Below, piece by piece: positions 175 to 47,077 of a stretch of DNA of 64,000 nucleotides. The translations under genes and the position numbers were made by a program. The stretch spans positions 6,036,312 to 6,100,311 of the forward strand of contig KK106981.1 in the NCBI GenBank assembly GCA_000611775.1, read 5' to 3'. The first letter of the stretch is position 1. The number at the start of each line of letters is the position of its first letter. The notes under the pieces are model-generated. The model saw only the letters and a program-made list of their open reading frames with translations, was not told the DNA's origin and searched no databases. The stretch is from Umbilicaria muhlenbergii (taxonomy: Eukaryota; Ascomycota; Lecanoromycetes; Umbilicariales; Umbilicariaceae).

Positions 175-443
175 ATGCATCTATCTCTCTCCTCATCCAT
201 CGCAGTCCTAATCTCATTCACAGCGCTAACCCTAGCAGTGCCTGTGACCAACGACGACACCTCCCCATCGGCTCTATTCCCACGAACCGACTTCTGCTAT
301 AACGCCCCCAAAACCAAAGCCGGAACGTAAGCACCTTCCCCCCCCACCATCCTCCCCCCAAACCTCGCCCCTCCTTCCATCCCCTCCTCTTTCTAACCCC
401 CCTCCCCCCCACCAGCCACCTTCCCGCACGTTCCCTCTCCCCC
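175..443 (+). pseudogene. 5' fragment of a small secreted-protein gene
   Basis: The ATG at 175 opens a signal-peptide-like N-terminus (MHLSLSSSIAVLISF...) followed by a segment ending FCYNAPKTKAGT, with a splice donor at 327. The acceptor at 415 opens a second exon that starts CCACCT. The same arrangement occurs in the intact gene at 14440-15154 (FCDNAPQTVAGT, donor in the same codon, second exon also starting CCACCT), so the two are paralogs. In this copy the homology stops at about base 443-444, exactly where the 126-bp repeat array of the opposite-strand receptor begins. The rest of exon 2, about 390 bases in the paralog, is missing. The product would be truncated, and its function is unknown even for the intact paralog. 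Confidence 0.7.
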
Positions 444-3400
444 GCTCATGCAGTGCCTCTGCTTTGCTGTGCTGGCCTTGATCGCTGTAAACAGCTGCAA
501 GACTTGACATTGTCCTGAGAGTATCAGGGTGCTCAGACCCTAGCTGCCTTTCTTGATTTTTAAGCACTTGCTCATGCAGTGCCTCTGCTTTGCTGTGCTG
601 GCCTTGATCGCTGTAAACAGCTGCAAGACTTGACATTGTCCTGAGAGTATCAGGGTGCTCAGACCCTAGCTGCCTTTCTTGATTTTTAAGCACTTGCTCA
701 TGCAGTGCCTCTGCTTTGCTGTGCTGGCCTTGATCGCTGTAAACAGCTGCAAGACTTGACATTGTCCTGAGAGTATCAGGGTGCTCAGACCCTAGCTGCC
801 TTTCTTGATTTTTAAGCACTTGCTCATGCAGTGCCTCTGCTTTGCTGTGCTGGCCTTGATCGCTGTAAACAGCTGCAAGACTTGACATTGTCCTGAGAGT
901 ATCAGGGTGCTCAGACCCTAGCTGCCTTTCTTGATTTTTAAGCACTTGCTCATGCAGTGCCTCTGCTTTGCTGTGCTGGCCTTGATCGCTGTAAACAGCT
1001 GCAAGACTTGACATTGTCCTGAGAGTATCAGGGTGCTCAGACCCTAGCTGCCTTTCTTGATTTTTAAGCACTTGCTCATGCAGTGCCTCTGCTTTGCTGT
1101 GCTGGCCTTGATCGCTGTAAACAGCTGCAAGACTTGACATTGTCCTGAGAGTATCAGGGTGCTCAGACCCTAGCTGCCTTTCTTGATTTTTAAGCACTTG
1201 CTCATGCAGTGCCTCTGCTTTGCTGTGCTGGCCTTGATCGCTGTAAACAGCTGCAAGACTTGACATTGTCCTGAGAGTATCAGGGTGCTCAGACCCTAGC
1301 TGCCTTTCTTGATTTTTAAGCACTTGCTCATGCAGTGCCTCTGCTTTGCTGTGCTGGCCTTGATCGCTGTAAACAGCTGCAAGACTTGACATTGTCCTGA
1401 GAGTATCAGGGTGCTCAGACCCTAGCTGCCTTTCTTGATTTTTAAGCACTTGCTCATGCAGTGCCTCTGCTTTGCTGTGCTGGCCTTGATCGCTGTAAAC
1501 AGCTGCAAGACTTGACATTGTCCTGAGAGTATCAGGGTGCTCAGACCCTAGCTGCCTTTCTTGATTTTTAAGCACTTGCTCATGCAGTGCCTCTGCTTTG
1601 CTGTGCTGGCCTTGATCGCTGTAAACAGCTGCAAGACTTGACATTGTCCTGAGAGTATCAGGGTGCTCAGACCCTAGCTGCCTTTCTTGATTTTTAAGCA
1701 CTTGCTCATGCAGTGCCTCTGCTTTGCTGTGCTGGCCTTGATCGCTGTAAACAGCTGCAAGACTTGACATTGTCCTGAGAGTATCAGGGTGCTCAGACCC
1801 TAGCTGCCTTTCTTGATTTTTAAGCACTTGCTCATGCAGTGCCTCTGCTTTGCTGTGCTGGCCTTGATCGCTGTAAACAGCTGCAAGACTTGACATTGTC
1901 CTGAGAGTATCAGGGTGCTCAGACCCTAGCTGCCTTTCTTGATTTTTAAGCACTTGCTCATGCAGTGCCTCTGCTTTGCTGTGCTGGCCTTGATCGCTGT
2001 AAACAGCTGCAAGACTTGACATTGTCCTGAGAGTATCAGGGTGCTCAGACCCTAGCTGCCTTTCTTGATTTTTAAGCACTTGCTCATGCAGTGCCTCTGC
2101 TTTGCTGTGCTGGCCTTGATCGCTGTAAACAGCTGCAAGACTTGACATTGTCCTGAGAGTATCAGGGTGCTCAGACCCTAGCTGCCTTTCTTGATTTTTA
2201 AGCACTTGCTCATGCAGTGCCTCTGCTTTGCTGTGCTGGCCTTGATCGCTGTAAACAGCTGCAAGACTTGACATTGTCCTGAGAGTATCAGGGTGCTCAG
2301 ACCCTAGCTGCCTTTCTTGATTTTTAAGCACTTGCTCATGCAGTGCCTCTGCTTTGCTGTGCTGGCCTTGATCGCTGTAAACAGCTGCAAGACTTGACAT
2401 TGTCCTGAGAGTATCAGGGTGCTCAGACCCTAGCTGCCTTTCTTGATTTTTAAGCACTTGCTCATGCAGTGCCTCTGCTTTGCTGTGCTGGCCTTGATCG
2501 CTGTAAACAGCTGCAAGACTTGACATTGTCCTGAGAGTATCAGGGTGCTCAGACCCTAGCTGCCTTTCTTGATTTTTAAGCACTTGCTCATGCAGTGCCT
2601 CTGCTTTGCTGTGCTGGCCTTGATCGCTGTAAACAGCTGCAAGACTTGACATTGTCCTGAGAGTATCAGGGTGCTCAGACCCTAGCTGCCTTTCTTGATT
2701 TTTAAGCACTTGCTCATGCAGTGCCTCTGCTTTGCTGTGCTGGCCTTGATCGCTGTAAACAGCTGCAAGACTTGACATTGTCCTGAGAGTATCAGGGTGC
2801 TCAGACCCTAGCTGCCTTTCTTGATTTTTAAGCACTTGCTCATGCAGTGCCTCTGCTTTGCTGTGCTGGCCTTGATCGCTGTAAACAGCTGCAAGACTTG
2901 ACATTGTCCTGAGAGTATCAGGGTGCTCAGACCCTAGCTGCCTTTCTTGATTTTTAAGCACTTGCTCATGCAGTGCCTCTGCTTTGCTGTGCTGGCCTTG
3001 ATCGCTGTAAACAGCTGCAAGACTTGACATTGTCCTGAGAGTATCAGGGTGCTCAGACCCTAGCTGCCTTTCTTGATTTTTAAGCACTTGCTCATGCAGT
3101 GCCTCTGCTTTGCTGTGCTGGCCTTGATCGCTGTAAACAGCTGCAAGACTTGACATTGTCCTGAGAGTATCAGGGTGCTCAGACCCTAGCTGCCTTTCTT
3201 GATTTTTAAGCACTTGCTCATGCAGTGCCTCTGCTTTGCTGTGCTGGCCTTGATGGCTGTAATCAGTTGCAAGATATGACATGACCCTGAGAGTATCAGG
3301 GTGCTCAGACCCTAGCTGCCTTTCTTGATTTTTAAGCACTTGCTCATGCAGTGCCTCTGCTTTGCTGTGCTGGCCTTGATCGCTGTAAACAGCTGCAAGA

Positions 3401-6400
3401 CTTGACATTGTCCTGAGAGTATCAGGGTGCTCAGACCCTAGCTGCCTTTCTTGATTTTTAAGCACTTGCTCATGCAGTGCCTCTGCTTTGCTGTGCTGGC
3501 CTTGATCGCTGTAAACAGCTGCAAGACTTGACATTGTCCTGAGAGTATCAGGGTGCTCAGACTCTAGCTGCCTTTCTTGACCTTCAAGCACTTGCTTATA
3601 TAGCAGCTTTGCTTTGCCGTACTGATGTTGCTTGCCGTAGAGAATTGCAAGGAGCTCTCTGGCTCGCAGTGTACTGAAATGTGTTGACTCAAGCTGCTTG
3701 GCGTATCCCGCCAGTACCCTTTGACACAGTAACTTAGCCTCTGAGTATCTCCCACGAGCGTCCCAATAGCGCACAACATCCATATTTGCATCCAAAAGAA
3801 AGAGATTTTCGTCAATATATAGGTCGGCATACTTGGTAAGCGCTTGAATGTGTGGCACAAACATCTCACATTGTAACCAACACTTGGGATTGGAAGGATT
3901 TTCAACTTGTAGGAAAGCGCCACAAACAAGCGCTACGGCGCACTGAAACCATTGACGCTGGGATCCTTCAATCCTGGTGTTCTCTTGTGTCATGAACTGG
4001 ATTAAGTCGTGTATGCGAAGTGCCGATGTGGTTGCATTTGTTTTTTGCTGTACGAGAGATAGGCTTCGGAGCTGCTGGATAGCTTTTTGGAATTGCATTG
4101 GCGACTGGAGTAGCGCGACTAAGGAATCTAGCTGTCGGGGTAGCTGTGAAGGCGCTTCATTATGGATTTCCTCAACACGTCGGCCACCACCTAGTTTCTT
4201 CTTGAGCTTGTCCCTGAACCCTATCTTTTTCTCCAGTGGGAGAAGACTTGCTCGCCGCAGCTTTTCCACACCGTTGGTGATAATATCAAGGGATATACTC
4301 TCAGGATCCAAGAATGAGAGTATTCTCATGAGATTGTTGGTATCTGGGGACAGTCGGCTTAATTCCTTGAATTGCATGGAAAACGCGGCGGCAACGGATG
4401 CTTGCTCGTAAGTAGATAAATCGTTTTCCCAACTGATGGCCTACAAAATATCAACTGGTGTCTGGAGGAAGAAGAAGATATAAGAGCCAAACTAACATTT
4501 ATCTTTTGGTCACTCCGGTACAGCTGTAGAAGATCGTCCATCGTTTTGTGGCTCTGCCTCATGAACGACGCTGCATGGTCCACAGCAAGTGGTAACCGCC
4601 CGACACTGTTGACAAGTTCTTTCGCTTTGGTCAGGACGTCAGGATCCACTATAGCAGCATCCAGTCCAACATTATCCAGAAGTATACGAGCAGCGTCCTC
4701 GATTCCCGGGGCTTGAAGTTCAAGAGTGTGATGCTCTAGGCCGGCTGAGCTAGCCAGTGCCTTAGCCGTATCATCTGTGCGTGTCGTGAAGAGTATACTA
4801 CCACCATAGCTACTGCGAGGTAGATGTTCTCGAAGAAAACTGACAGTGTCTCGATTAGCATTATCGAAGATCAAGAGCCAAGCGTTAGAGTTAACAGCAT
4901 GGTACTCTTCCAGCCAGCGTCGTGCGGCTGTCAACTTTGTGGATTGCTCTGGATGACTGCGGTCTACATCGCCAACGAGGTTGAGAATATTGGTGAAGCC
5001 TTGATTGAGCTTTTCAGTGGTTGCGGCGGAGATCCAAATGACGATGGGGAATGTTTTCCGATCAAAGACTAGCTTGGCGTATCGCAGTGCCAGCTGGGTC
5101 TTGCCAAGGCCTGGCATTCCGTGGATTGTGCAGCGTCGAGGAACACGAGGATCCCCAGTACTGAAGATAGTGTCGAGGTGTGCAAGCTCGGTCTTGCGAT
5201 CAATGGAATGAACTGATAGCAGATCAAGGGGAGCATCGATGAAAGACTGCGGTGGCAATGGCGTTCGCAAAGTATTGGTGCCGGCAGTATTGGCGGAGCG
5301 TAACCGTTGCTCTATGGAAGGAGAAACTGTAAGCTACAACGAGCGAGGTTGGATGGTGGGCAACACACCCTCTCGAAAAACTTCCGCTCTATGGTTCTCC
5401 AGCAATTGCACTATTCTGCGTTCAGCATCGAGTAGGAATGAAGTGTGTTGGTACCGAGATTGACGTACCTCTGGTTGCTTCATTTGCTTGGTGCATATGT
5501 TCCACTCCAGCTTTACGGTCAACTTCCTTTCGATTCTTTTCAATACTGGAAATTAGTGATTTGAAATCACTGTCCAGCGATCTCCAAGCAGACCTAACAA
5601 GGGTACCTAGCTAATAAGCATTGAAGAATTGGCTTTAGAGATACCAAAGCCACTTACGAGAGGCGGAACGATCGAATAATTTCATAGCCTGCAGTCCTAA
5701 GATAATGAAACCAGCATAAATATCCACGAGCGGCTCCCTTAGCAGCTGGAGTCGAGACGATCCGAAGATGTCAATGTAGGCTTGCAGCACAGGCAGCTCC
5801 TTTACTACATCCTCCAGCAAAGTTAGGACCGCATCGAAGGTATCGATAATATCACCGGCGATCTAATTGTGTGTCAGCTATTTTCCCCTCACGGCATATT
5901 TATGAGCAGACTTACAAGAAGAAGAAACTTCATGAAACCCCACAGAAGTCTAGCAGGATTGACGCCATGAACTTGCGGAGAAGATGACGCCAATATGTCG
6001 ATCACACCTCCAAACCGCTCTAGCCGGTCCAATAGCGGTTTCGCCTTTTCTCGGAGTCGTTTTTTCTTTTCCTTGATTGACTGAGAGCCGGCATGGCGAA
6101 GGTTTGCGTCATTCATTAACGTCAGGACGTCCTTCGGTCTGGAGTCTCCCGTTATCATATCGTAGTCTGTTGAAGACAGGCGGCCATCGTCTCGAAGATC
6201 TTTGACTTGGTTGAGAGCATCTGCATAGACAGTGTCCAAAGTGTAGGCTGGACTGTATAATGTCAGTAAAGAGGCCACACCAGCGTCAAGCCTAGTACAT
6301 ACGAAGTCATAGCGTCTCCACAAGCTCCACTTCTAGGAGTATGCCTCTGCTGGTGGTTATCGATATACGTCGACACGATGTAGGCTTATGGTTTTACTCT

Positions 6401-12709: not shown

Positions 12710-14439
12710 GGATTGCGGAGTGCCTGATCTACGAATGACGATGGATGATGAAACGAAAAGTAGACTTCTACAGATTGGGGCCACCCATTTTCAAAAGAGA
12801 CATGTTTGGAATAGTGCTATCAGAAACGGTGGATCTGCTTTTCCCGCCGCGATGTCGATCGCTATAATGTTTTGTTTTGGTCTTTGTATTCTTAGTAACT
12901 CTCGTGGTTTCATCTAATCTTCATTACATTTGCATTTTGCATTCTTGCTGTGCTTGCATTTACTTTGTTGCGTTCGAGCTCTTCCAACAACTTCAGGAGG
13001 CACAAACTCTACCGTTCGACACTTATGGAACACGCTTTGACGAACCTCATGCACACCTTACGGCAGACCCTCGCCTTCGCATCATTCGAAGGGACGCCCA
13101 TACCCCGCCTCCTATGCGCAACACCTACGCTCTTCGATTTCAATTCGCGAATTTCAGCAATATCGGACCGCAGGGGGAGATTTGCCCGGGAGGAGCCACG
13201 ATAGATCAGTTCCGTCCCAGCAACGATGACTTTCCATCATATCGGCATACTTTTCTATCTGTTCATTTTTGCGGCCTGTTATATGCTTATCAACGCTCCT
13301 TTCATACTAAGACGCTTGTTAGCGTATCTAGTTTAGTGGTAATTTATATGCATTCTACAAGAACATGCCATGTCGTCAGTCGATCTTACAATTTGATCTG
13401 CAATGTTCAACTTGATGCCTATAGCTCCCCTATGGTGTACCGACGCAACCAGACTTGGGCTCTTCCTTCGACTGTGGGTCGGGAGAAAGGGTCGTATATC
13501 ATCCTCGGCTACTTTTTGAAGCCGGCAGTGTAAGACTAACCACATAGTACTAGGGCAAACATACACACGAAAGCCATCCCAGTATTTGGGGTTTCGAAAG
13601 TAGGCTTAGAAGATTCGACGAAACGACAAAGCGCATCAGCGGTATCACTATTCGCGGTGATCTACCACGTCATGAACTGCAACCCTCCACTATGCACCAA
13701 CTCCAACGGTGGGCTCGAACAATGGTGCAACCCCAAACCTCCCGATTGCATCATCAAGTCCAGGCCGTCTGACTGTTGCGCAAAACCATGGGAACATTTC
13801 TCAAGGTCGGCGGTTCCCTGTCGCAACTTCTGCCTGCTGCCACTCTTTCCACCCAGCTCGCAGTTAAATAGAGCGAAAGAGCCCGGTCATCCGAGAGCTA
13901 CCCCACGGAGCTCCCCTTCCACGGCCGCCCTCGGGGCCATTCAAGACTGAACACCATGGGCTACATACACTAGTCAGAGTTTCACGATCTTCGCCTATGG
14001 GCGAGAAACCCAACCTTCAGCACCTAGCTGCCGATCTCCGTTCCATTCCATGTGGATCTTGAAAGGGCCATTGCATCGATACCCAATTGCTACGCAAAGA
14101 ACTCTCCGTCTGCAGACTCTTCTGATGCGTATGCCGCGTGGGCGTTGCCTCCCGCGAAACATTGGGGTTGGGTTTCGAAGTTATGCGACCCTGCTGGATT
14201 AGTGCTCGTAACCCTCGGCGCTTGTAGCTTGAAGCTTACCACCGCGTGGACTTCGGCCCCAAAGGAACAGAGAGGGAGGGAACTGGCTATATAGAGTGGG
14301 CGGACGTCATATCATGCATGGCTATAACGTTCAATTTTAATTTTCGCTTTGCTCCTGACCATTATATGTGCTTTACTCTCGATGGAACCCTAAGCGACCA
14401 TTACCGAGCCACGTATACGACATTTCCACTCATGTTACC
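12710..14439. other. 1.7 kb intergenic stretch
   Basis: This contains the 3' end of the RNA-binding gene and the promoter of the secreted-protein gene. An open frame at 12877-13533 has no recognisable domain and looks accidental. Nothing else was seen. Confidence 0.5.
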
Positions 14440-15154
14440 ATGCGACCCCTCAACCTATCTATGCTGTTCATCATTCTATTCTCCTTCACCGAGCTCGGCC
14501 TCACCATCCCACTCACCCCCGACGCCAGCCCTCCCTCCCTAACCACTCGAGGCCGATTCTGCGACAACGCCCCCCAGACCGTCGCCGGCACGTAAGTACC
14601 CCAACCGCCCGCGCTCCCCCCTTCCCCAACCCACAGCCCCTTCTCCCACCCTCAGCAGCACCACCCGCCAGCACCACCACCGCAACCACCAACCACCCCA
14701 TCAGCTAACACCCCCCCCTTCCCCACACAGCCACCTCTCCCCACGCGCGCTTTCCCCTCGCACCACCCCGCAGCGCCCCCGCCGCGCCCTCCCCGCCCCC
14801 ATAGTCTGGTGCGTCCCCAACAGCAGCACCTACCTAATAATCCTGCTCCAATCACGCATGCCCGGGATCGCGATCCTGCAATTCCTCAACGACGCGTACA
14901 ACATCCTGACGTCGCACATCAGCGCGGCGGGGGACGGGGTGATCGCGGCCGGGCAGTGGAGTCTGGAGGTCAACGGCATCGGCATGCGGACGGTGAATAC
15001 GAATAACCACCAGCAGACGTGGGGGGTGCTCGGGGCGGCGGTGGAGGGGCTGAGTCATTATTTTTATAACAATCAGGATAGGTTTGGGGGGGTGTATTTT
15101 TATATTTTTGATGGGGGGGTGGAGGTGGGGCAGGGGAGTTTGGGGCCGCTTTGA
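14440..15154 (+). CDS. Small secreted protein of unknown function (intact paralog)
   Basis: Exons 14440-14591 and 14731-15154 give 191 residues. The start at 14440 is chosen because it places a signal-peptide-like stretch (MLFIILFSFTELGLTIP) at the N-terminus, as in the fragment at 175. The mature part begins with a proline/threonine-rich segment, then FCDNAPQTVAGT, a basic RPRRALPAP stretch and a C-terminal domain with VWCVPNSST, LQFLNDAYNIL, NNHQQTWGVLGAAVEGL and YIFDGGVEVGQG. Cysteines are few, so it is not a typical cysteine-rich effector. The basic stretch could be a processing site, which is inference. I do not recognise the family. The strand is strongly C-rich at the 5' side and G-rich at the 3' side. 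A truncated paralog lies at the window's left edge. Confidence 0.75.
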
Positions 15155-30985: not shown

Positions 30986-33900
30986 CTACCCAGTCTGCTC
31001 CCCCTTCTCCGTGCCCTTTGCAGGTATTTTCCTCTTTTCCTCCACAATCCTATGAGCCTTGAAACACTCCTCCGGCGTCATGATCTCGAGCTGGAAAGAT
31101 AATCAACTTCGTTAGTAAATTCAATCTTTACTCAGTGATCCATTGGACCACTTGTTGGGCATAGAGGCACTTACATAACACCACTTTCGCGTCCAATCCT
31201 TCCTCATCTCATTGTCCTTATCAGCCGTAGATATGACGTGTAGCTTCCTGAAATACTCCAATTTCGTCCTTGCCCAGCCCGCAAACCACTCCACTAATCG
31301 CATATCGTTGCGCGTCATGCCGTCCGGGTCTTTCGCTTGTCTTCCAATGCCCACGTTGAGATCGTACCTGGACAATTCTTTCGAACAGACCATTGGTGCA
31401 TACTCGCTGGGTGACTGAAAATCGTCGTCTTCGTCCATCAGATCCATGGGTAGAAGCTTGTAGATGAGAGCATAGATCTCCACGTAAATCTTTCCTTCCC
31501 CAACGCTTCTATCTTCTATGATGCTCAGTATCCAGTCTCTAAATCTAGGTCTCATTGCCAGTTTCCACGTATTTGATGGTTTGTCCCTCAAGACAGAGCC
31601 TTGAAACCATTTCAATATGGTTAGAGCCTTTTGTGGATAGAGCAAGATAACCGAGTCCGTCAAGAGAAGAGCTGCTCCGTGTGGAAACAGGCGGATCAGT
31701 GTTTGTTCCGAGGGCGCCGCGTTCAAGTCGATGGCAAAGATGTTTATCGATTTCCGAAGAAGGCGAGCCAGACCAGGTATCAGGTGAAGAGTGTGAAAAT
31801 CGTCATGGATCTATCAAGTATAGTCAGTGAGTAGTTAGATGGATGTTCCTTTGGATTCGGAGAATCCACAAACCAGTACGACTCCGGCATTAACGTAATT
31901 GCAGAAGTAATCCCAGGCGCCAGGTGTGTTAGAACTGTATATGGTGGCATCGTTGGCCTCCAAAAATTTGACGGCCAGATCGTGTTCGTCCGCGTGGGAA
32001 TGTGGAAACAACAAGAAGAAGTTCTTTGAACTGTCGTCCGGCTGATGTGCGACTTGGGGAGTGAGTCGGCTGTATTCAATGTGGAATATGTTGCGGAACA
32101 TCGTGTTATAACCATGCTCTCCGTCTAGAATTGTCTGTTGCGGGTCTAAAGCTGCGAACTCCGGATCATCTTCTACCATATGAAGAACTGGAGTGCGCAT
32201 TACAAATCGCAGACACGCTTCCGTAGAACTCCCACCGGGAATACCATCAAGGAAGCTCCAAGCGCCAACACCAGTGGGGTAGATGACCATCATGAAATGC
32301 TTGGTGAAGAAAAGACCTCCAGCAGCGCGGATCTTCAAGTTCTCAGCCATCGCCTCCACAGCTGCAGCCGTATGTTGGAAACTGACGATGTGACCAGCTC
32401 CGAAGTAATGCAAGTCTCCCTGCTCGTCCACATGTCAGTGACTAACTTCTCGGCGAAGCAACGCAAGTACTATAATGTTGTAGCTTAGTGGAAGTATGAA
32501 TGGGAGTTTACCTCATGATAGAATGCTTTATAGTCCTCCGCGGTGCATATGTGCGTGAACCAGACATGCATCTGCCGAGGACCGACCTTGATACCCAACA
32601 GCAAGCGTTTCGACGGCTTGTCGAGGCCCCGGAATCGTACTTGAGCGACTTCTAGATAAGCGGAACCAATCTTAATCGTAGCAAAAACATCAGAGAAGTC
32701 TTGAACTCGGCCGTCGCTAAAGAAGTTCGCAGGTGCTGATGGCGGAGCGACTTCAACGGTAGTTGCGTCAGGGATGGCCATGCTTTGTAGCGACCCCGAT
32801 CTCTGGCCGGCAGTCTCGAAAGAGACAGACCTTTTTGTCGGTGCCTGAAGAACGTCGGGTGAGGAAAAATTCGAAGCAGGTGGTACACCATGGTCTTGAG
32901 ACGCATCCTGCGGCGGAGGCTCTGATGACATTGCGTAGTCAGGCACAGGTTCCAATGCCATCGTAGATTCAGGTTTATCATCGCTGTGTTGTAGCATTTT
33001 ACTCTCAGTTTCCGGAGACCAGGTTTCCGCACGGTCGATTGGCCCTGGAATATCAGTGACGCCGGCCAAATTCGAATCATTTATTAGTCTTTGTTCCTCC
33101 TCTCTGGCTAGGCGCTCTTGAATGAGTTGATAGGGAGTTTTGATCGGCTCGTGCATCTTGACCAGTTCCTGCGGCGATGGCAACTGGACGGAAGATTTGG
33201 CCTCTTTTGCAGCCTTGAGGTTGACGAATGTCAGATGTTTAGGGTCAGGAGCGGGCTCATTCCGACCAGCCTTCTCGTATCTCCTCTTGGTTGACAACTT
33301 GTTGAATGTCTCCGGCTTCGACCCACTTAAGCTAGGTTTACGTGGTTGCGGCTCTAATAACTTGCGTGACTTCACCTTCGCAGCCCAGTTACCGAGGACA
33401 GCCGCACCTGAGACTTTACGTCTGGCTTTGGGTCCTGATATCTTTGGACCGAGTCTTGCAGGGCCGTGACCTGCGGTACCCATTTGTGAGCTTTCTGGTT
33501 TCGGTGTCTTTTTGATGGCGGTGCCGGCATTCGACGCTGAGGTAGTGACCATTTTGCTAGGCAGTTTCGCTGTCGGGAGGGTGGCACGCTTTTTAATTGG
33601 CGGCCCTCTGTTCTCACTCTGGTTTGGGGAGTGCCTTTCAGAGCTGCCTCTCCTCACTGTCTTTTCTCCACGTGGTTTTGTTCTCCTTTGGATCCTTTTG
33701 TGCTTCTCGTTGAACGCCTTGGTGTGGAGGTCTTCCATCAATGAATCATCAGTCAATGCCTCATCGCTGCTGCCACCTGCAGGCTTGTTTGACTTTGGCT
33801 TCCTACGACTCCGGATGTCAGAGTCGCTATAGCGCGGATCATCATCATCTTCACTCTCATCATCCACGACAAAGTCTGGATACTCCGGTATTCTGACAGT

Positions 33901-34374
33901 GCCGCCTTGCTGAGAACCTTGCGCCCGACGCGGGCTATCAATTGCCGCCCTCACGGCCTCATCAGAAGATCCTTCAGACGTCTCCTTTGAAGTTATGGAG
34001 AGGCCGAGTCGACGTCTCTTTTTCCGTCGGCGTGCTTTCCGCAACTCAGTTGCCGCAATCCATGCTTCCACTCTGGCCTCTAAAGCATCGACATCATACG
34101 GCTTTTCGAGACCCCTGGCAATACGCATCTTGCGCGCTTGCCATAGATGGAGAGTGCCGTCGTCCTGAAAGTTGGATTCCGTCTCCCAGGTGCACCTCTC
34201 GTCTGGATAGCCCTCCCACTTGACAAGAAACTCTTTGATGCCGCCATTCATTCTCTCGGCGAGAACACCTTCCAACGGATACTCCTCGCGCGGCTCACTC
34301 GGTACTGTCGAATTGGTAGAGACGGTGTCATTGTCACTTCCCTCGGGAGAGCTGATATCGTCCACTTTTGACAT
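30986..34374 (-). CDS. Chromodomain protein with long C-terminal region (Chp1-like?)
   Basis: Exons 34374-32512, 32419-31874, 31810-31175 and 31090-30986 join to 1,049 residues. A chromodomain sits at about residues 33-80 (FLVKWEGYPDERCTWE, with the aromatic cage residues expected for methyl-lysine binding). A basic stretch follows (RKARRRKKRRRLG), then a long acidic/basic disordered region (DDESEDDDDPRYSDSDIRSR). From about residue 570 an ordered part begins (VFATIKIGSAYLEVAQVRF, LLLGIKVGPRQMHVWFTH). Later parts read AGHIVSFQHTAAAVEAMAEN, WDYFCNYVNAGVVL, then HDDFHTLHLIPGLARLL and WFAGWARTKLEYFRKLHV. This order recalls S. pombe Chp1, whose C-terminus has SPOC-like and PIN parts and which works in the RITS complex at heterochromatin. 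That match is from memory and unproven. A nuclear histone reader is the safe call. Confidence 0.8.
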
Positions 34375-41472: not shown

Positions 41473-44400
41473 TTATATTCCACCGCCGTTGTCGCCGGCA
41501 TCGAGGAGGTTGGAACGGCCGTGAATATAGCGCAGCTGCTCTCCTTGATCTCCAAGTTCACCCAAGATTCTCCCAATCGGCACTTGGCCCCTCATCTCCC
41601 TAGCCAGCTCAGTAGCACTCTGAATGATCTTCTGCTTTTGCTTAAACCCATCATTCTGAATCTTCGCCTGTCTTTGCATCGTGGCCACCATCCGATCATC
41701 TTTCCGCTGCGCGTACCTTTCCTCGTCCTCTTTAAGTATATTCAATTCGTTTCGCCGCTTATCGAACGCCCTCTTTTCCCTCGTCTCCCTTTCCCTAGCC
41801 TCAGTCTCTTCAGCTTTGCGCTGTCTGGCCTCCGCCCACTCCTCTTCTTGCTGACGTGCTCTGATAGCAGCTGCAATCTTCCTTTCTCCCTCCGCAATGA
41901 CATTGAGACGCTCCTGCTCACGCCGCTGCACCGCCCGCGCTTCCTTGTCTAATCGAGCTTCTTCCTCGACTCGTCTTTGTTCCTCAGTCTGACGCGCACG
42001 CGCTTCTTCTTCGTGCCGCTTGCGGGTGTCCTCAGCCTCTTCCACGGCGGCGAGAATGTTCGGAGGGAACCCGCAAGCGCCTACAGGCTGATTCGCACCT
42101 TTTTCGGCATCCCAGTATCGATCTTCACAGCCAAAAGCGCGAAGAGCTTCCGCAAGTTGCAAAGCGCGGCATTCGAATAGCTCGCAACAAGATTGCTGCC
42201 TATCTAGGTTGCTGCGAGGCGACTGGGCGCATTTGAAACGCCGTACGTACATTGTGGGACTGTAACAGAAGCCGTTGCTGCTACGGTAAATGTTGTGGTC
42301 TTCGTTCAACGTCTCGCACAAGGTGGGGAAAGCGGCAAGGAGGGCCTTCGTCATTACAAATGGCGAAAGATTGTCCATGGCCTGGAGGACCACGGATTTA
42401 CCTTGTGATAGCTTCTTGAGGTTTGGCTTCGCTTTTGCGAGGATTTTAAGCATCACTTTGAGATCAGCTGCGTTTCTGTTTACGTCGGCTCTGCAACACA
42501 GGTTCTCTAAGGGAGTACGAGAATCGGTTAGGTTGATCCCGGGAAAATTGATTGAGGCGCCATGGTCCAGGAGTAGTTTTGCAGCAGAGGAATTTAGATT
42601 CTGGCAAGCGATATGTAGAGACTCATCGTCAGGATCCGCTTCATGTTCAAGGAGAAGTTTCATGATCTCCAATTTTCCAGCACGTGTTGCGTAGTATAGA
42701 GGTGTACCATGACATTTGTCCTCAGTGTTCGGGTCGGCTTGAGCTTCCAATAGTTGTAAAACAATATTGACGGGAGATACAGTAGCTGCGATGATGAGTG
42801 GGCTGACGCTAGACATTGCTGTCCTGAAGTTGGAGTCGGCTGGCACGAAGGCGAATAAGTGTCAGTACACACAAACTTGCTGGTCTGCGTTTTGAAATGG
42901 ACTTACCTCCATGCTTCAAAAGCACTTTCATAATGCCCGTGTCAAGCTTTGGGTCAGCTTGACAGAGAAGCCACAATAGTGCAGAGACCTCTTCCACTCC
43001 ATGATCAGGCGTGAAGCTCCAGGTGAAACGTGCATCTGCGGGACAGCCATTGCTAAGAAGGGACTGCAGCAGGTTTGGCTTATCCGGATGACGATGCAAG
43101 ACTAGATAGAGCGGATTCCTCGAAGGCTCGTCTTCCTCGAAGTATATAAATTTTCTATCTCCGGACTGCTTCATGAACAGATCTACCATCGCCAGGAGCG
43201 AGTTTTCCGCAACATCTGATTCTAAGAGTGAATAGAACGCAGAGGATAACGTACTTTCGTTCGGTTCTTGGCTCAATAATATCTTAACAAGTCTACAGTC
43301 ATTGTTCTGCACGGCAATGCAAAGAATTTTGCCGCCCTTAAAGTCAACATTTAACGTCGAACCGCAGGCAAGAAGACAGTCTGAAAATTCGATTTGTAGT
43401 GGATCTCGTGAAGTCATATAGTCTAGAAACTTCTGGTCGACTGATCGGCCTGCAGCTCCATGCTGGAGCAAATGTTTCCTGACTCTCAGTAGAAGCCGGG
43501 AGTCAACGTTTCTCATCTTTTGATCATCTGCAATGGCCTTAAAGGCGTTCGAATAGATCTTGCGCTGCGGTTTCGCTGTAGCCAGAAGTTCAAGAGATTT
43601 GATATCAGCCTGCTCGGTAGCAATGATGACGCTTTTGCCATTCTCGAAATTCGGGTCCGCGTGGCTTTCAAGAAGACATTGGGTCAGACTATGGTCTTGC
43701 TCTTGAACCGCTTGTATCAATGCATTATGGATTGTGGCATTTTTGGCGACTCCGGCTCTGGTAAGGAGTCGTACTGAAGAGAGCCTTCTTAGAAGATTGG
43801 AGCTATGTTCTCGCATCGTTATCTCGATGGCATCTGATCTATGCTTAGGATCGTGAGAATGATTCAGGAGACACTCCAAAATCGAATCGTAGCCGTTCGC
43901 GACCGCTAGCTTGATAGCTCGCCCATTTTCAAAATCAGCAGAGGCTTTGTTCTTCAGCAAGAGGTCTATGGTCGGCTGCGAAGCAGGTCCCTCGGATACA
44001 GCGTTTATTAGTGCAGCATTGACTTCAGCTCCACTAGCGCCACTGGAAAAGAGTACTGGAAGAAGTTGTAAGCGAACATCTTGCTCGTGAGCCATGGCAA
44101 GAGGTATCAGAGAAGCAAGGATGTCCGGAGCTCCTTTGCCTTGAACAAGTGCTTTCAAGATGTCGATGTGAAGGGGCTGTGAGACGACATGCTTGATGGC
44201 GTCAGCATTGGAAAAATCCACTCGAGCACCATGTTCCATGAGTAGTTCGATAATCCGTAAACTGCAACCTGACGATCTGTGTACCTCCGTTATAAGTGAG
44301 CTGTTGACTTGATCGCCTTTCGCGCCACTGTGCAGAAGCATAGACACAAATTTATATCGTGAGCGAGCCCCGACTTCGTTCATTGCAGCAGGAAGTATGC

Positions 44401-47077
44401 TTGCTAGTATGCGGTGGCCAGGCTTACTGCCTATGAGGTATTCAAGTAGCGCCACGTTCTTCGACAGCATTGCTAACTCGATCGCTTTGCCACTATCATG
44501 GCTACAAGATGCTCCGTGATCCAAGAGCATCTTCACAATCGTGAAATCATATGCCGCGCCATTATTGATCTCTTGTATAAGAGCACTGTCAAGTGCTTTT
44601 CGACCTGCCCCAGCTTGCAACAACGAGCTCAGCTTTGCTTGGCGATCCTTTGTACAAGGGTCAAGCACAGCCGGCAGCGCGGCGATTAGTGCAGCTTGCT
44701 CCGGCTTATTGAAGTCGATGACAGAGGAGACCATCGATGGCGATAAGGAGACCACGACTTTAGACAATAACCGGCCTCCGCGATAGTTTATATCTGCTTT
44801 AGTGAGTAGTAAGTGAACAAGCTCTTCATCGATGCGACGCTCTCCAAGGGCATCGTCTAAGGCTCCTGAAACATCTGGGCCTTGGGCACCATGGTCTAGA
44901 AGTATAGTGGCGGCTCTACGCCTCAGGGCAGGCTGTTTAAGTCGTACAACTTTAGCTATAGCTAAAGAGACAGAAGCAGGTTCTGGATTGTGTCGCACCA
45001 GTAGCTCCAGCAGCTCTAAACAGCCTCTCTGTGTAGCCAACTGTAAGCATCTTCCATGCAAGCAATTCACGTTTGCTCCAGCGTTCAGGATAAGATTTAC
45101 AAGATCCAGATCAACCAGTTCAGACGGTGAATCTACGGCTTCCATCAGAGCCGCGTCCAGAACAGGGGTAGGTATGCCGATGGGTTGTGCAGCGTCAACG
45201 ATGGACTTGGTCATGTAGTATCTTAGCCGATGAGGACCAGAAGTGATCTGAGGTAGTACATGTTGCATTAGGTTTTGCTGTGGTCGACCTTTATTCAGAA
45301 GCAGTTTCAAGGTCTCTAGATCTCCTCCGCTAGCACATATCTGAAGAGCTTGCGCTTCATTGTAGTTCACGCTGGCCTTGTGATTGAGGAGCAGCTCCGT
45401 TATGCTGATCAGTCGCTGTTCCACGGAGACGACAAGAGCCTTATCCAGTGGCATTCCCGCAGCGCCTTCGGCTTTAGATAGAAGCATAGACATCATTTCA
45501 TGTGTTCGATCCTTGACGAAAGGTCGCCGAATGTCGTCAAATCGGTCGATCACACATCTTGGACTAACTTCACCAAGCAGAAGAATTTTGACGAGCTTTG
45601 AATCTCCAGCCGTAATTGCTATGCGCAGGCTTTTCGCTCTCTGGTAATGGAGCGAAGCTCCATACTTGACAAGCAAGTCTGCAAGATTCCTTTCGCCTCC
45701 TCGGACAACCTGAACAAGAGTCTCGGCCACACAGTCGCCTTGAGCACCAGCACAGAGTAGAATCTCAAGTAGTAACTCCCTTTCCGAGGGCGTAATGACA
45801 CTATTCACTGAGAAGGCGTCGTTGAATACGCTAGAAACTGCTTTTGTAGTTGGCTTGCCTTTCATGATGACGAGAACTAGATCAACCCGCTGGTCTTGCA
45901 CGGCTTTCCGTAGGGCGGCAGCATCGTTGTAGTTGACGTCTGCTCCATGTGTGACGAGCAGTGAGACAATCTCTGTTTGTCCCTGCGCTACTGCCCGCGG
46001 TAGATTTTCGGTTAGATACTTCTCGTGGACCTTGATCCGAGCTCGAAGCAGTAATCTGACCAGAATTGGCTTCTGAGATGTAACTGCAGACCCGAAGATA
46101 GTTCCGCTCATTGCATTTGGGTTCGTTTCGAATCGCAGAATACTCTCCACTATCTTCGGCAAGTTCTGTCTGACTGCTTTGTCCAGTGCATCTTCCAAGC
46201 TTCTTGACGAGGCGCCGCGGCTGGCAAGTAGGTTCACCATATCGACATTGTTCTTTGAGGCTGCTGTTGATATGTAATTGATAGGTGTTGACGTAACACT
46301 CTGCCTCCGTAGTATTCTGGACTTGGCCGTTCCTGTCACCGCGTTGGCGTCCAATCCCATATCGAGAAGCACTTCGGCTAGATCAGCCATTCCACACTCT
46401 ACCGCTTCTTTCATTGCCTGGCTCTTTTCTTCGTCGCTAAATTTCCAATTGCTGGGGTCAGATACTTTTCGGTTCAATAACTTTGATCTCAATAATTTTG
46501 GCATGCCTTCGCCATGATCTTTGAGATCCAAAGTGCTACGTCGATTCCTGACGAGAATATCATGAGCCAATTGACGGCTTAAGGCCGATGCGGTCGAGAC
46601 GCGAGGCGCCTGGGGTTCAATGTCAGGCTCTATCGTAACATCGGAACATTTCGTCTTTATGAGGGACGCCAATTTTTTTGCTCGGTCATCAGCACTCGTC
46701 TGTAAGCTGCTTTGGGATAAAACCGTTTCAGTCTCCAGGTAGTCCTGAGCTTGTTTCTGGAGGTCTTCTGATACTTCTAGGCCAGCCTGGCTCAATACTT
46801 CTAGGCCAGCCTGACTCAATACTTCTAGGCCAGCCTGACTCAATACTTCTAAACCAGCCTGGCTCATCATGAAGTTGGAACTTGCGGTCGTCTGAGAGGG
46901 TGGTTGGAATCTATTGGGAATCGCCGCACCAGCATGCATCGGCGGATTGGACCAATCCACGACACTTGGAGATGTATGGCTATTGCTATGGGATGTTGTC
47001 TTAGACGCCTCTAAAGATTCAGCAATAGGCGTATGCTGATCGACAACGTTGATGTAGGTCGCGCGAGTCCCTATCAC
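41473..47077 (-). CDS. Giant ankyrin-repeat protein with C-terminal coiled coil
   Basis: Exons 47077-42907 and 42839-41473 join in frame to about 1,845 residues (intron donor GTAAGT, acceptor TGCCAG). The N-terminus is S/T/P-rich with four tandem LSQAGLEV-type units. From about residue 190 the protein is an almost continuous run of ankyrin repeats, many of the form LLxxGAxxNxxxGxALxxA (NVDMVNLLASRGAS, LVSLLVTHGADVNYN and the like). Some repeats are spaced wider than 33 residues. A second, tighter ankyrin block lies after the intron (GTPLYYATRAGKLEIMKLLL). The last 200 residues are a highly charged coiled coil (RREQERLNVIAEGERKIAAA). No effector or NACHT domain is visible. The frame begins at GTG, so the true start is either the Met in PPMHAGAAIP or an upstream exon. 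A scaffold or recognition role is inferred. Confidence 0.82.
46773..46868 (-). repeat. Four-copy 24-bp in-frame tandem repeat
   Basis: Four direct 24-base units (ACTTCTAGGCCAGCCTG...) encode four LSQAGLEV-like octapeptides near the N-terminus of the ankyrin protein. Units differ by one to three bases. Confidence 0.9.

What the first reader, a model, noticed from the sequence alone, without database searches (positions are those of the whole stretch)
445..3594. 25 near-identical 126-bp TPR units in an NLR gene
The array keeps an exact 126-base period for 3.15 kb with almost no differences, including silent positions, except one copy at about 3217-3342. Protein-level selection cannot explain identity at silent sites, so concerted evolution by unequal crossing-over or gene conversion is implied. 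High-identity repeats that vary in number are known in fungal STAND receptors, where they help change recognition specificity. This one is at the long end of what I would expect.
Basis: partly seen in the sequence, partly recalled or inferred. Interest (0 to 1): 0.7.

Follow-up and report, generated by a model that had tools for sequence, protein, structure and literature searches.

The report
Near-perfect TPR array in fungal NLR
A fungal immune-receptor-like gene carries 25 almost identical copies of one helical repeat; arrays like this are known, but this one is very long, lacks the CpG pairs that near-identical repeats of this kind tend to lack in this genome, and breaks off abruptly inside a neighbouring gene.

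Summary
Window 444-3593 is 25 units of exactly 126 bp; 23 of 25 are identical and 22 consecutive units are perfect. The minus-strand gene encodes a DUF7708/Goodbye-like - NB-ARC - TPR protein. High-identity TPR arrays in fungal NLRs are a known kind; the longest TPR case named in PMC4986451 has 21 units.

(2) The unit is CpG-poor: 1 CpG where its protein predicts 5.7 (P=0.002), while the same gene's NB-ARC part is normal. Over 17 intact TPR regions of this genome CpG loss follows internal identity (Spearman -0.82; -0.78 without this one), and 5 of 6 tested stop-bearing TPR loci are CpG-depleted. A repeat-directed CpG mutation process is likely, with some controls against it (see report). (3) All 8 differing codons are nonsynonymous, not significant (P about 0.15).

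Variable copy number and changed recognition specificity are untested here.

The parts
444..3593 (-). 25 tandem 126-bp units (42-aa TPR) of the NLR gene; 444-3215 is 22 perfect units
3216..3341 (-). variant unit: 8 base and 5 amino-acid changes (T-V, S-Y, A-T, V-D, D-H), all in the first helix (helix placement inferred)
3468..3593 (-). first unit of the array in the protein, 4 base and 3 amino-acid changes
3594..4440 (-). region between NB-ARC and array with degenerate TPR units; CpG ratio 0.83 (measured on 3594-4377)
4497..5270 (-). NB-ARC nucleotide-binding domain (ORF 4359-5270); CpG ratio 0.94 (measured on 4503-5270)
5469..6310 (-). N-terminal exons by hand-made model (6310-6303, 6252-5916, 5862-5658, 5606-5469): DUF7708, and a weak Goodbye match below its cut-off
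274..443 (-). foreign tail of the NLR frame, about 56 codons, antisense to the secreted-protein gene
175..443 (+). 3'-truncated small secreted protein gene (my reading): exon 1 175-326, intron 327-415, exon 2 from 416 cut at 443|444
443..444 (.). junction where both convergent genes appear to lose their 3' ends

Best explanation
A fungal NLR-type gene (DUF7708/Goodbye-like front end, NB-ARC switch, TPR sensor end) whose TPR array has been expanded and homogenised by unequal exchange or conversion from one unit. That unit had already lost nearly all its CpG pairs, most likely because a repeat-directed CpG-to-TpG process (methylation and deamination, MIP- or RIP-like) acts on high-identity TPR arrays in this genome. 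The same junction has removed the 3' ends of this gene and of a convergent secreted-protein gene. Shown: the array, the domains, the CpG depletion and its statistical link with identity, the break of both reading frames at the junction. Inferred: unequal exchange as the homogeniser, the mutation process, a local deletion as the cause of the junction, and a sensor role that triggers cell death.
For: Array anatomy. Domains. CpG observed/expected 0.13 in the array against 0.87 in the rest of the gene. Synonymous-codon null: one unit has 1 CpG against 5.7 expected, P=0.002; 0.006 for the circular consensus unit. Over 17 intact TPR regions, internal identity against CpG ratio: Spearman -0.82, 2 of 20000 permutations as low; -0.78 without the window, 4 of 20000. 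One unit per high-identity array: Fisher P=0.0015 over 5 arrays, 0.019 over the 4 others. TG+CA, the products of CpG mutation: 25 against 19.3 in the unit, P=0.009; L031 and L035 exceed every control. Of 6 tested stop-bearing TPR loci 5 have 5-19 stops and CpG ratios 0.00-0.29. Two cytosine methyltransferase matches over nearly the whole domain. In the C3 paralogue of the secreted protein exon 2 runs about 130 aa beyond the point where the window turns into array. The two nearest NLR paralogues have a C-terminus and stop of their own after the TPRs.
Against: Array length and junction rest on an assembly without reads. 24 of 25 units keep one CpG whose C-to-T change would be silent, so nothing has hit the array since its last homogenisation. 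L082 has 5 stops but normal CpG (1.02). Of 18 NB-ARC control regions 3 are low at P<0.05 (0.79, 0.74, 0.46), the last in the L027 gene. Over 13 genes with both parts measured the array is lower than the NB-ARC part in only 7. In 4 stop-riddled loci measured whole, the depletion covers the whole fetched stretch. Of the 4 other high-identity arrays only L035 is below P=0.05 when cut to one unit. The TG+CA excess of the unit (z about 2.4) lies inside the range of 18 NB-ARC controls (mean 1.2, maximum 3.15), as does L025; L027 is at that maximum.
Confidence: 0.6

Rival explanations
1. Hypervariable recognition receptor: unit number and order vary among strains and set ligand specificity, as for het-d/het-e/het-r of Podospora.
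For: Same architecture class and repeat-identity class; repeat number polymorphism at each of 8 ANK/TPR loci tested in P. anserina (PMC4986451, passages); the variant unit changes five residues in the likely binding helix.
Against: 23 of 25 units are identical, so almost no diversity is stored; no isolates available; the gene has apparently lost its native 3' end.
Confidence: 0.35
2. Assembly artefact: the array was unrolled too often and/or the assembler jumped from the array into an unrelated place, which also explains the broken secreted-protein gene.
For: Perfect copies and a mid-unit end in a foreign gene are what a mis-resolved repeat gives; short reads fail on the comparable WD40 NLR arrays of Podospora (PMC12222747, passages).
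Against: The junction lies in mid-contig (about 6.04 of 10.66 Mb) with non-array sequence on both sides; the two broken genes converge, so one small deletion suffices; one search lists no second array; one search lists no close orphan of the missing exon 2 (at most 46% identity over most of its length, partial matches of 47% and 53%; the list is cut off and masked stretches are not seen).
Confidence: 0.25
3. The CpG shortage is a founder accident: the unit that happened to be amplified was CpG-poor and nothing acts on the repeats.
For: Identical units count as one draw; L031 is not depleted when cut to its consensus unit (5 against 5.6).
Against: Trend over 16 other regions and one-unit-per-array Fisher P=0.019 without the window.
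Confidence: 0.25
4. Decaying pseudogene: after the 3' truncation the gene is no longer used and the array drifts in length.
For: Missing native C-terminus and a foreign tail of about 56 codons.
Against: An 1889-aa frame stays open in the splice model (model chosen by hand for openness); no silent or nonsense differences in the array.
Confidence: 0.3

Closest known systems
Fungal NB-ARC/TPR NLRs with high internal conservation (Dyrka et al. 2014, PMC4986451)
   Same: NB-ARC plus TPR; repeats over 85% identical; concerted evolution inferred
   Different: 25 units (the most they name for TPR is 21), almost no variation between units; Goodbye-type N-termini are said to be very seldom found with such repeats; the term CpG does not occur in that paper
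Podospora anserina hnwd genes het-d, het-e, het-r (PMC1805685, PMC2873952, PMC12222747)
   Same: Repeat-domain NLRs with concerted evolution; repeat gain and loss seen experimentally; pseudogene relatives inactivated by RIP
   Different: HET-NACHT-WD40, not DUF7708-NB-ARC-TPR; RIP there is CpA type and the WD repeats of the pseudogenes were spared, here the loss is CpG type and marks high-identity repeats
TPR-like repeat protein of P. anserina in PDB 4y6c / 4y6w; kinesin light chain TPRs
   Same: Solved structures that match the unit: 4y6c E=9.8e-37, kinesin light chain 1 (9pmb) E=2.1e-63
   Different: Short fragments or designed proteins; that 4y6c belongs to the paper PMC4811334 is recalled, and that paper was not held, so not read

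Membership tests
Fungal NLR (STAND) protein | NB-ARC or NACHT domain | tested here: met
   PF00931 57.8 bits, cut-off 23.5
Fungal NLR (STAND) protein | C-terminal superstructure-forming repeats | tested here: met
   TPR_12 26 stretches, TPR_10 26 stretches
Fungal NLR (STAND) protein | annotated N-terminal effector domain | tested here: inconclusive
   DUF7708 50.9 bits (cut-off 25), function unknown; Goodbye 19.2 bits, below its cut-off 24.8
High-internal-conservation NLR repeats | over 85% identity over at least 100 aa | tested here: met
   23 of 25 units identical, 25 x 42 aa
High-internal-conservation NLR repeats | repeat number polymorphism among isolates | not testable with these tools
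   one genome only
High-internal-conservation NLR repeats | positive selection at binding positions | tested here: inconclusive
   8 of 8 differing codons nonsynonymous, P about 0.15
Heterokaryon-incompatibility (het) gene | cell death on fusion of unlike strains | not testable with these tools
   needs strains
Classical RIP target | CpA-to-TpA signature (TA/AT up, CA+TG down) | tested here: not met
   array TA/AT 0.79, (CA+TG)/(AC+GT) 2.28; four stop-riddled loci TA/AT 0.53-0.66 and 1.73-2.05
CpG-type repeat-directed mutation (MIP-like or RIP-like) | CpG loss that depends on repeat identity | tested here: met
   Spearman -0.82 over 17 regions; counter-cases L082 and the NB-ARC part of L055
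CpG-type repeat-directed mutation (MIP-like or RIP-like) | methylation or mutation seen directly | not testable with these tools
   needs methylation data or crosses

The most novel reading that the evidence does not exclude
TPR sensor arrays of NLRs in this fungus are under a CpG-directed, repeat-sensing mutation process that kills long arrays, and only units that have run out of CpG can be amplified into long perfect arrays: this 25-unit array is such a mutation-proof survivor, with its codons (no CGN arginine) and perhaps its Gln/His-rich protein shaped by that filter.
Probability: 0.25. Interest if true: 0.65.

Novelty: new member of a known kind. Interest (0 to 1): 0.42.

Why it matters
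Fungal immune receptors use repeats that can be shuffled, while fungal genomes destroy repeats. If CpG content decides which repeat arrays survive, the conflict between genome defence and receptor diversity becomes measurable in any genome with such arrays. The case also shows that repeat counts of these receptors need spanning long reads.

Tried and rejected
Classical CpA RIP as cause of the stop-riddled TPR loci: rejected for the four loci measured, the indices go the other way. Arginine loss as a trace of CGN mutation: R content does not follow the CpG ratio (rho 0.22, P=0.41, n=16) and Gln+His only weakly (rho -0.48, P=0.057). Excess of nonsynonymous differences: not significant (P about 0.15). 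Exchange of units with other loci: searches list no other locus with the unit (best other TPR match 51% aa identity). A displaced 3' half of the secreted-protein gene: one search lists, apart from the query's own gene, at most 46% identity over most of the C3 paralogue's exon 2 (partial matches 47% and 53%); the list is cut off, and the C5 paralogue is masked there. Dating from zero silent differences: no mutation rate for this organism, so not attempted in numbers. The organism was not identified; no eukaryote collection is on hand.
Full report
Observation. The array is in the given sequence. It runs 444-3593 in 25 units of 126 bp. Unit by unit, 23 of 25 are identical; unit 3216-3341 differs at 8 bases and unit 3468-3593 at 4. 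The 22 units from 444 to 3215 are perfect and hold about 594 synonymous sites. All 12 differences lie in 8 codons and all 8 are nonsynonymous, which by chance would happen about 15% of the time. The two imperfect units are the first and third of the array in the protein, so variation sits at one edge and the rest is homogeneous, as expected from unequal exchange (inference).

Gene. The reading frame is on the minus strand. A hand-made splice model, the one I prefer of the six open ones printed, gives exons 6310-6303, 6252-5916, 5862-5658, 5606-5469, 5311-4497 and 4440-274, 1889 aa. Pfam finds DUF7708 (E=2e-13), a Goodbye match below its cut-off, and NB-ARC (E=1.3e-15) in the front 560 aa and TPR_12/TPR_10 throughout the array. 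The unit matches solved structures of kinesin light chain TPRs and of a Podospora repeat protein (4y6c). The closest NB-ARC relatives in the genome, C3:5173152 (40%) and C1:980995 (38%), also carry TPRs and end in a short C-terminus and stop of their own.

The end of the array. At 443|444 the array breaks in mid-unit into exon 2 of a plus-strand gene with a signal-peptide-like start at 175 (exon 1 175-326, intron 327-415; my reading, no signal-peptide program was run). Two other loci match this stretch: C3:2660458-2660626 over 278-441 (69%) and C5:2678759-2678844 over 279-360 (79%). The C3 gene shows the same exon-intron layout and its exon 2 runs about 130 aa beyond the point where the window turns into array. 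A search with that exon 2 gave 151 matches in the genome (150 of 184 candidates scored, the printed list cut off). Apart from the C3 gene itself none listed exceeds 46% identity over most of the length; two partial ones reach 47% and 53%. So no close orphaned half is visible; the C5 relative is masked there and was left alone. The NLR frame instead reads about 56 codons of antisense. Because the two genes converge, one deletion that removes both 3' ends explains the junction; a misassembly cannot be excluded without reads.

CpG. The array has CpG observed/expected 0.13 against 0.87 in the rest of the gene. With codons drawn from 3720 NB-ARC codons of this genome, the protein of one unit should carry 5.7 CpG and carries 1 (P=0.002); the NB-ARC part of the same gene has a ratio of 0.94 and the stretch before the array 0.83. 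One search hit about 32 TPR places (my grouping of 94 matches). I tested 23: 17 intact, 6 with stops; 9 were not tested, one of which (L036) I held. Some tested regions are cut by the ends of the fetched loci. In the 17 intact ones the CpG ratio falls with internal identity (Spearman -0.82, 2 of 20000 permutations as low; -0.78 and 4 of 20000 without the window). Without L083, a GC-rich outlier (ratio 2.17), it is -0.86 (n=16) and -0.82 (n=15); with the best 126-base window as the measure, -0.79 and -0.75. Taking only one consensus unit from each of the 5 high-identity open arrays, Fisher's P is 0.0015, or 0.019 without the window; single P values are 0.006 (window), 0.49, 0.07, 0.12 and 0.03. 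Of the 6 loci with stops, 5 have ratios 0.00-0.29 and 5-19 stops; the sixth, L082, has 5 stops, a normal ratio (1.02) and low internal identity (0.51). The products TG+CA are in excess in the unit (25 against 19.3, P=0.009); L031 and L035 exceed every control, L027 is at the control maximum and L025 within the control range. The 18 NB-ARC controls themselves average z=1.2 with a maximum of 3.15.

Results against this reading. The controls are 18 of the 22 NB-ARC places other than the window's; four were left out. They also supplied the codon table. Three of the 18 are low at P<0.05 (L044 0.79, L053 0.74, L055 0.46). In 13 genes with both parts measured the array is below the NB-ARC part in 7 only (L049 barely, 0.85 against 0.86). 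Among the five of these with the highest identity it is below in 4; the fifth, L027/L055, is depleted in both. In the four stop-riddled loci measured whole the depletion covers the whole fetched stretch, 0.05-0.29, so there it is not confined to the array. Classical CpA RIP indices are not met. 24 of 25 window units keep one CpG whose C-to-T change would be silent, so nothing has hit this array since its last homogenisation. Arginine content does not follow the CpG ratio.

Mechanism. Cytosine methyltransferases are present: four matches, two over nearly the whole domain, one of these (C4) with one stop in the unspliced reading. The C6 one has ENV and the C4 one EQT at the catalytic motif; that EQT marks RID/Masc1 is recalled. 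PMC4352252 (passages) attributes CpG signatures in fungal transposons to methylation and deamination rather than to RID-type RIP. I take a MIP-like process acting on high-identity repeats as most likely, followed by amplification of a CpG-poor unit. That the protein senses a ligand through the TPR superhelix and triggers cell death is inferred from the family.

Known work. PMC4986451 (passages) reports that 21.2% of TPR NLR repeats show high internal conservation, repeat number polymorphism at each of the eight P. [quoted passage not shown] it also says such repeats are prone to RIP. PMC1805685 (passages) describes RIP-inactivated NWD pseudogenes whose WD repeats escaped heavy RIP. PMC2873952 (passages) shows repeat loss and gain in hnwd genes. 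PMC12222747 (passages) treats the assembly of such arrays from long reads. PMC12258605 (passages) finds only weak relations between RIP and NLR number. PMC12543289 (passages) surveys RIP across fungi. I saw no report of CpG depletion tied to repeat identity in NLR arrays in the listings; only the top rows were seen, and that library omits most subscription papers.

Verdict. A long, near-perfect member of a known class, with a 3' truncation and a genome-wide CpG pattern that makes a concrete hypothesis about how such arrays survive.

Noticed in passing
window 175-443 and about 14368-15154; C3:2660458-2661018 (L011): A small secreted-protein family (the C3 member has no Pfam match) gives 151 matches in this one genome, including one more in the window at C1:6051070-6051456.
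   Followed up: partly
C2:6755025-6756817 (L033), C4:1299004-1300041 (L037), C4:1367100-1368600 (L081), C4:1400293-1401288 (L038), C2:6618428-6619054 (L039): TPR arrays of 126-bp period with 5-19 in-frame stops, GC 36-42% and few or no CpG; three lie within about 102 kb on C4.
   Followed up: partly
L008 4748-5008 (C1:10661747-10662007), about 2.5 kb from the end of contig C1: A TPR gene fragment next to the contig end, with a 43-base 91% match to the window unit; a secreted-family match lies at C1:10663901-10664251.
   Followed up: no
window 175-518, plus strand: The truncated secreted-protein frame, read across its intron, runs into the array and would give a short chimeric cysteine-containing protein that stops at 516-518 (my reading).
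   Followed up: no
window 41473-47077: Two large ankyrin-repeat ORFs on the minus strand (457 and 1422 aa); a 24-bp repeat in 4 copies lies at 46771-46866.
   Followed up: no
window 32485-34374: A 629-aa ORF with a chromodomain (E=1.4e-10).
   Followed up: no
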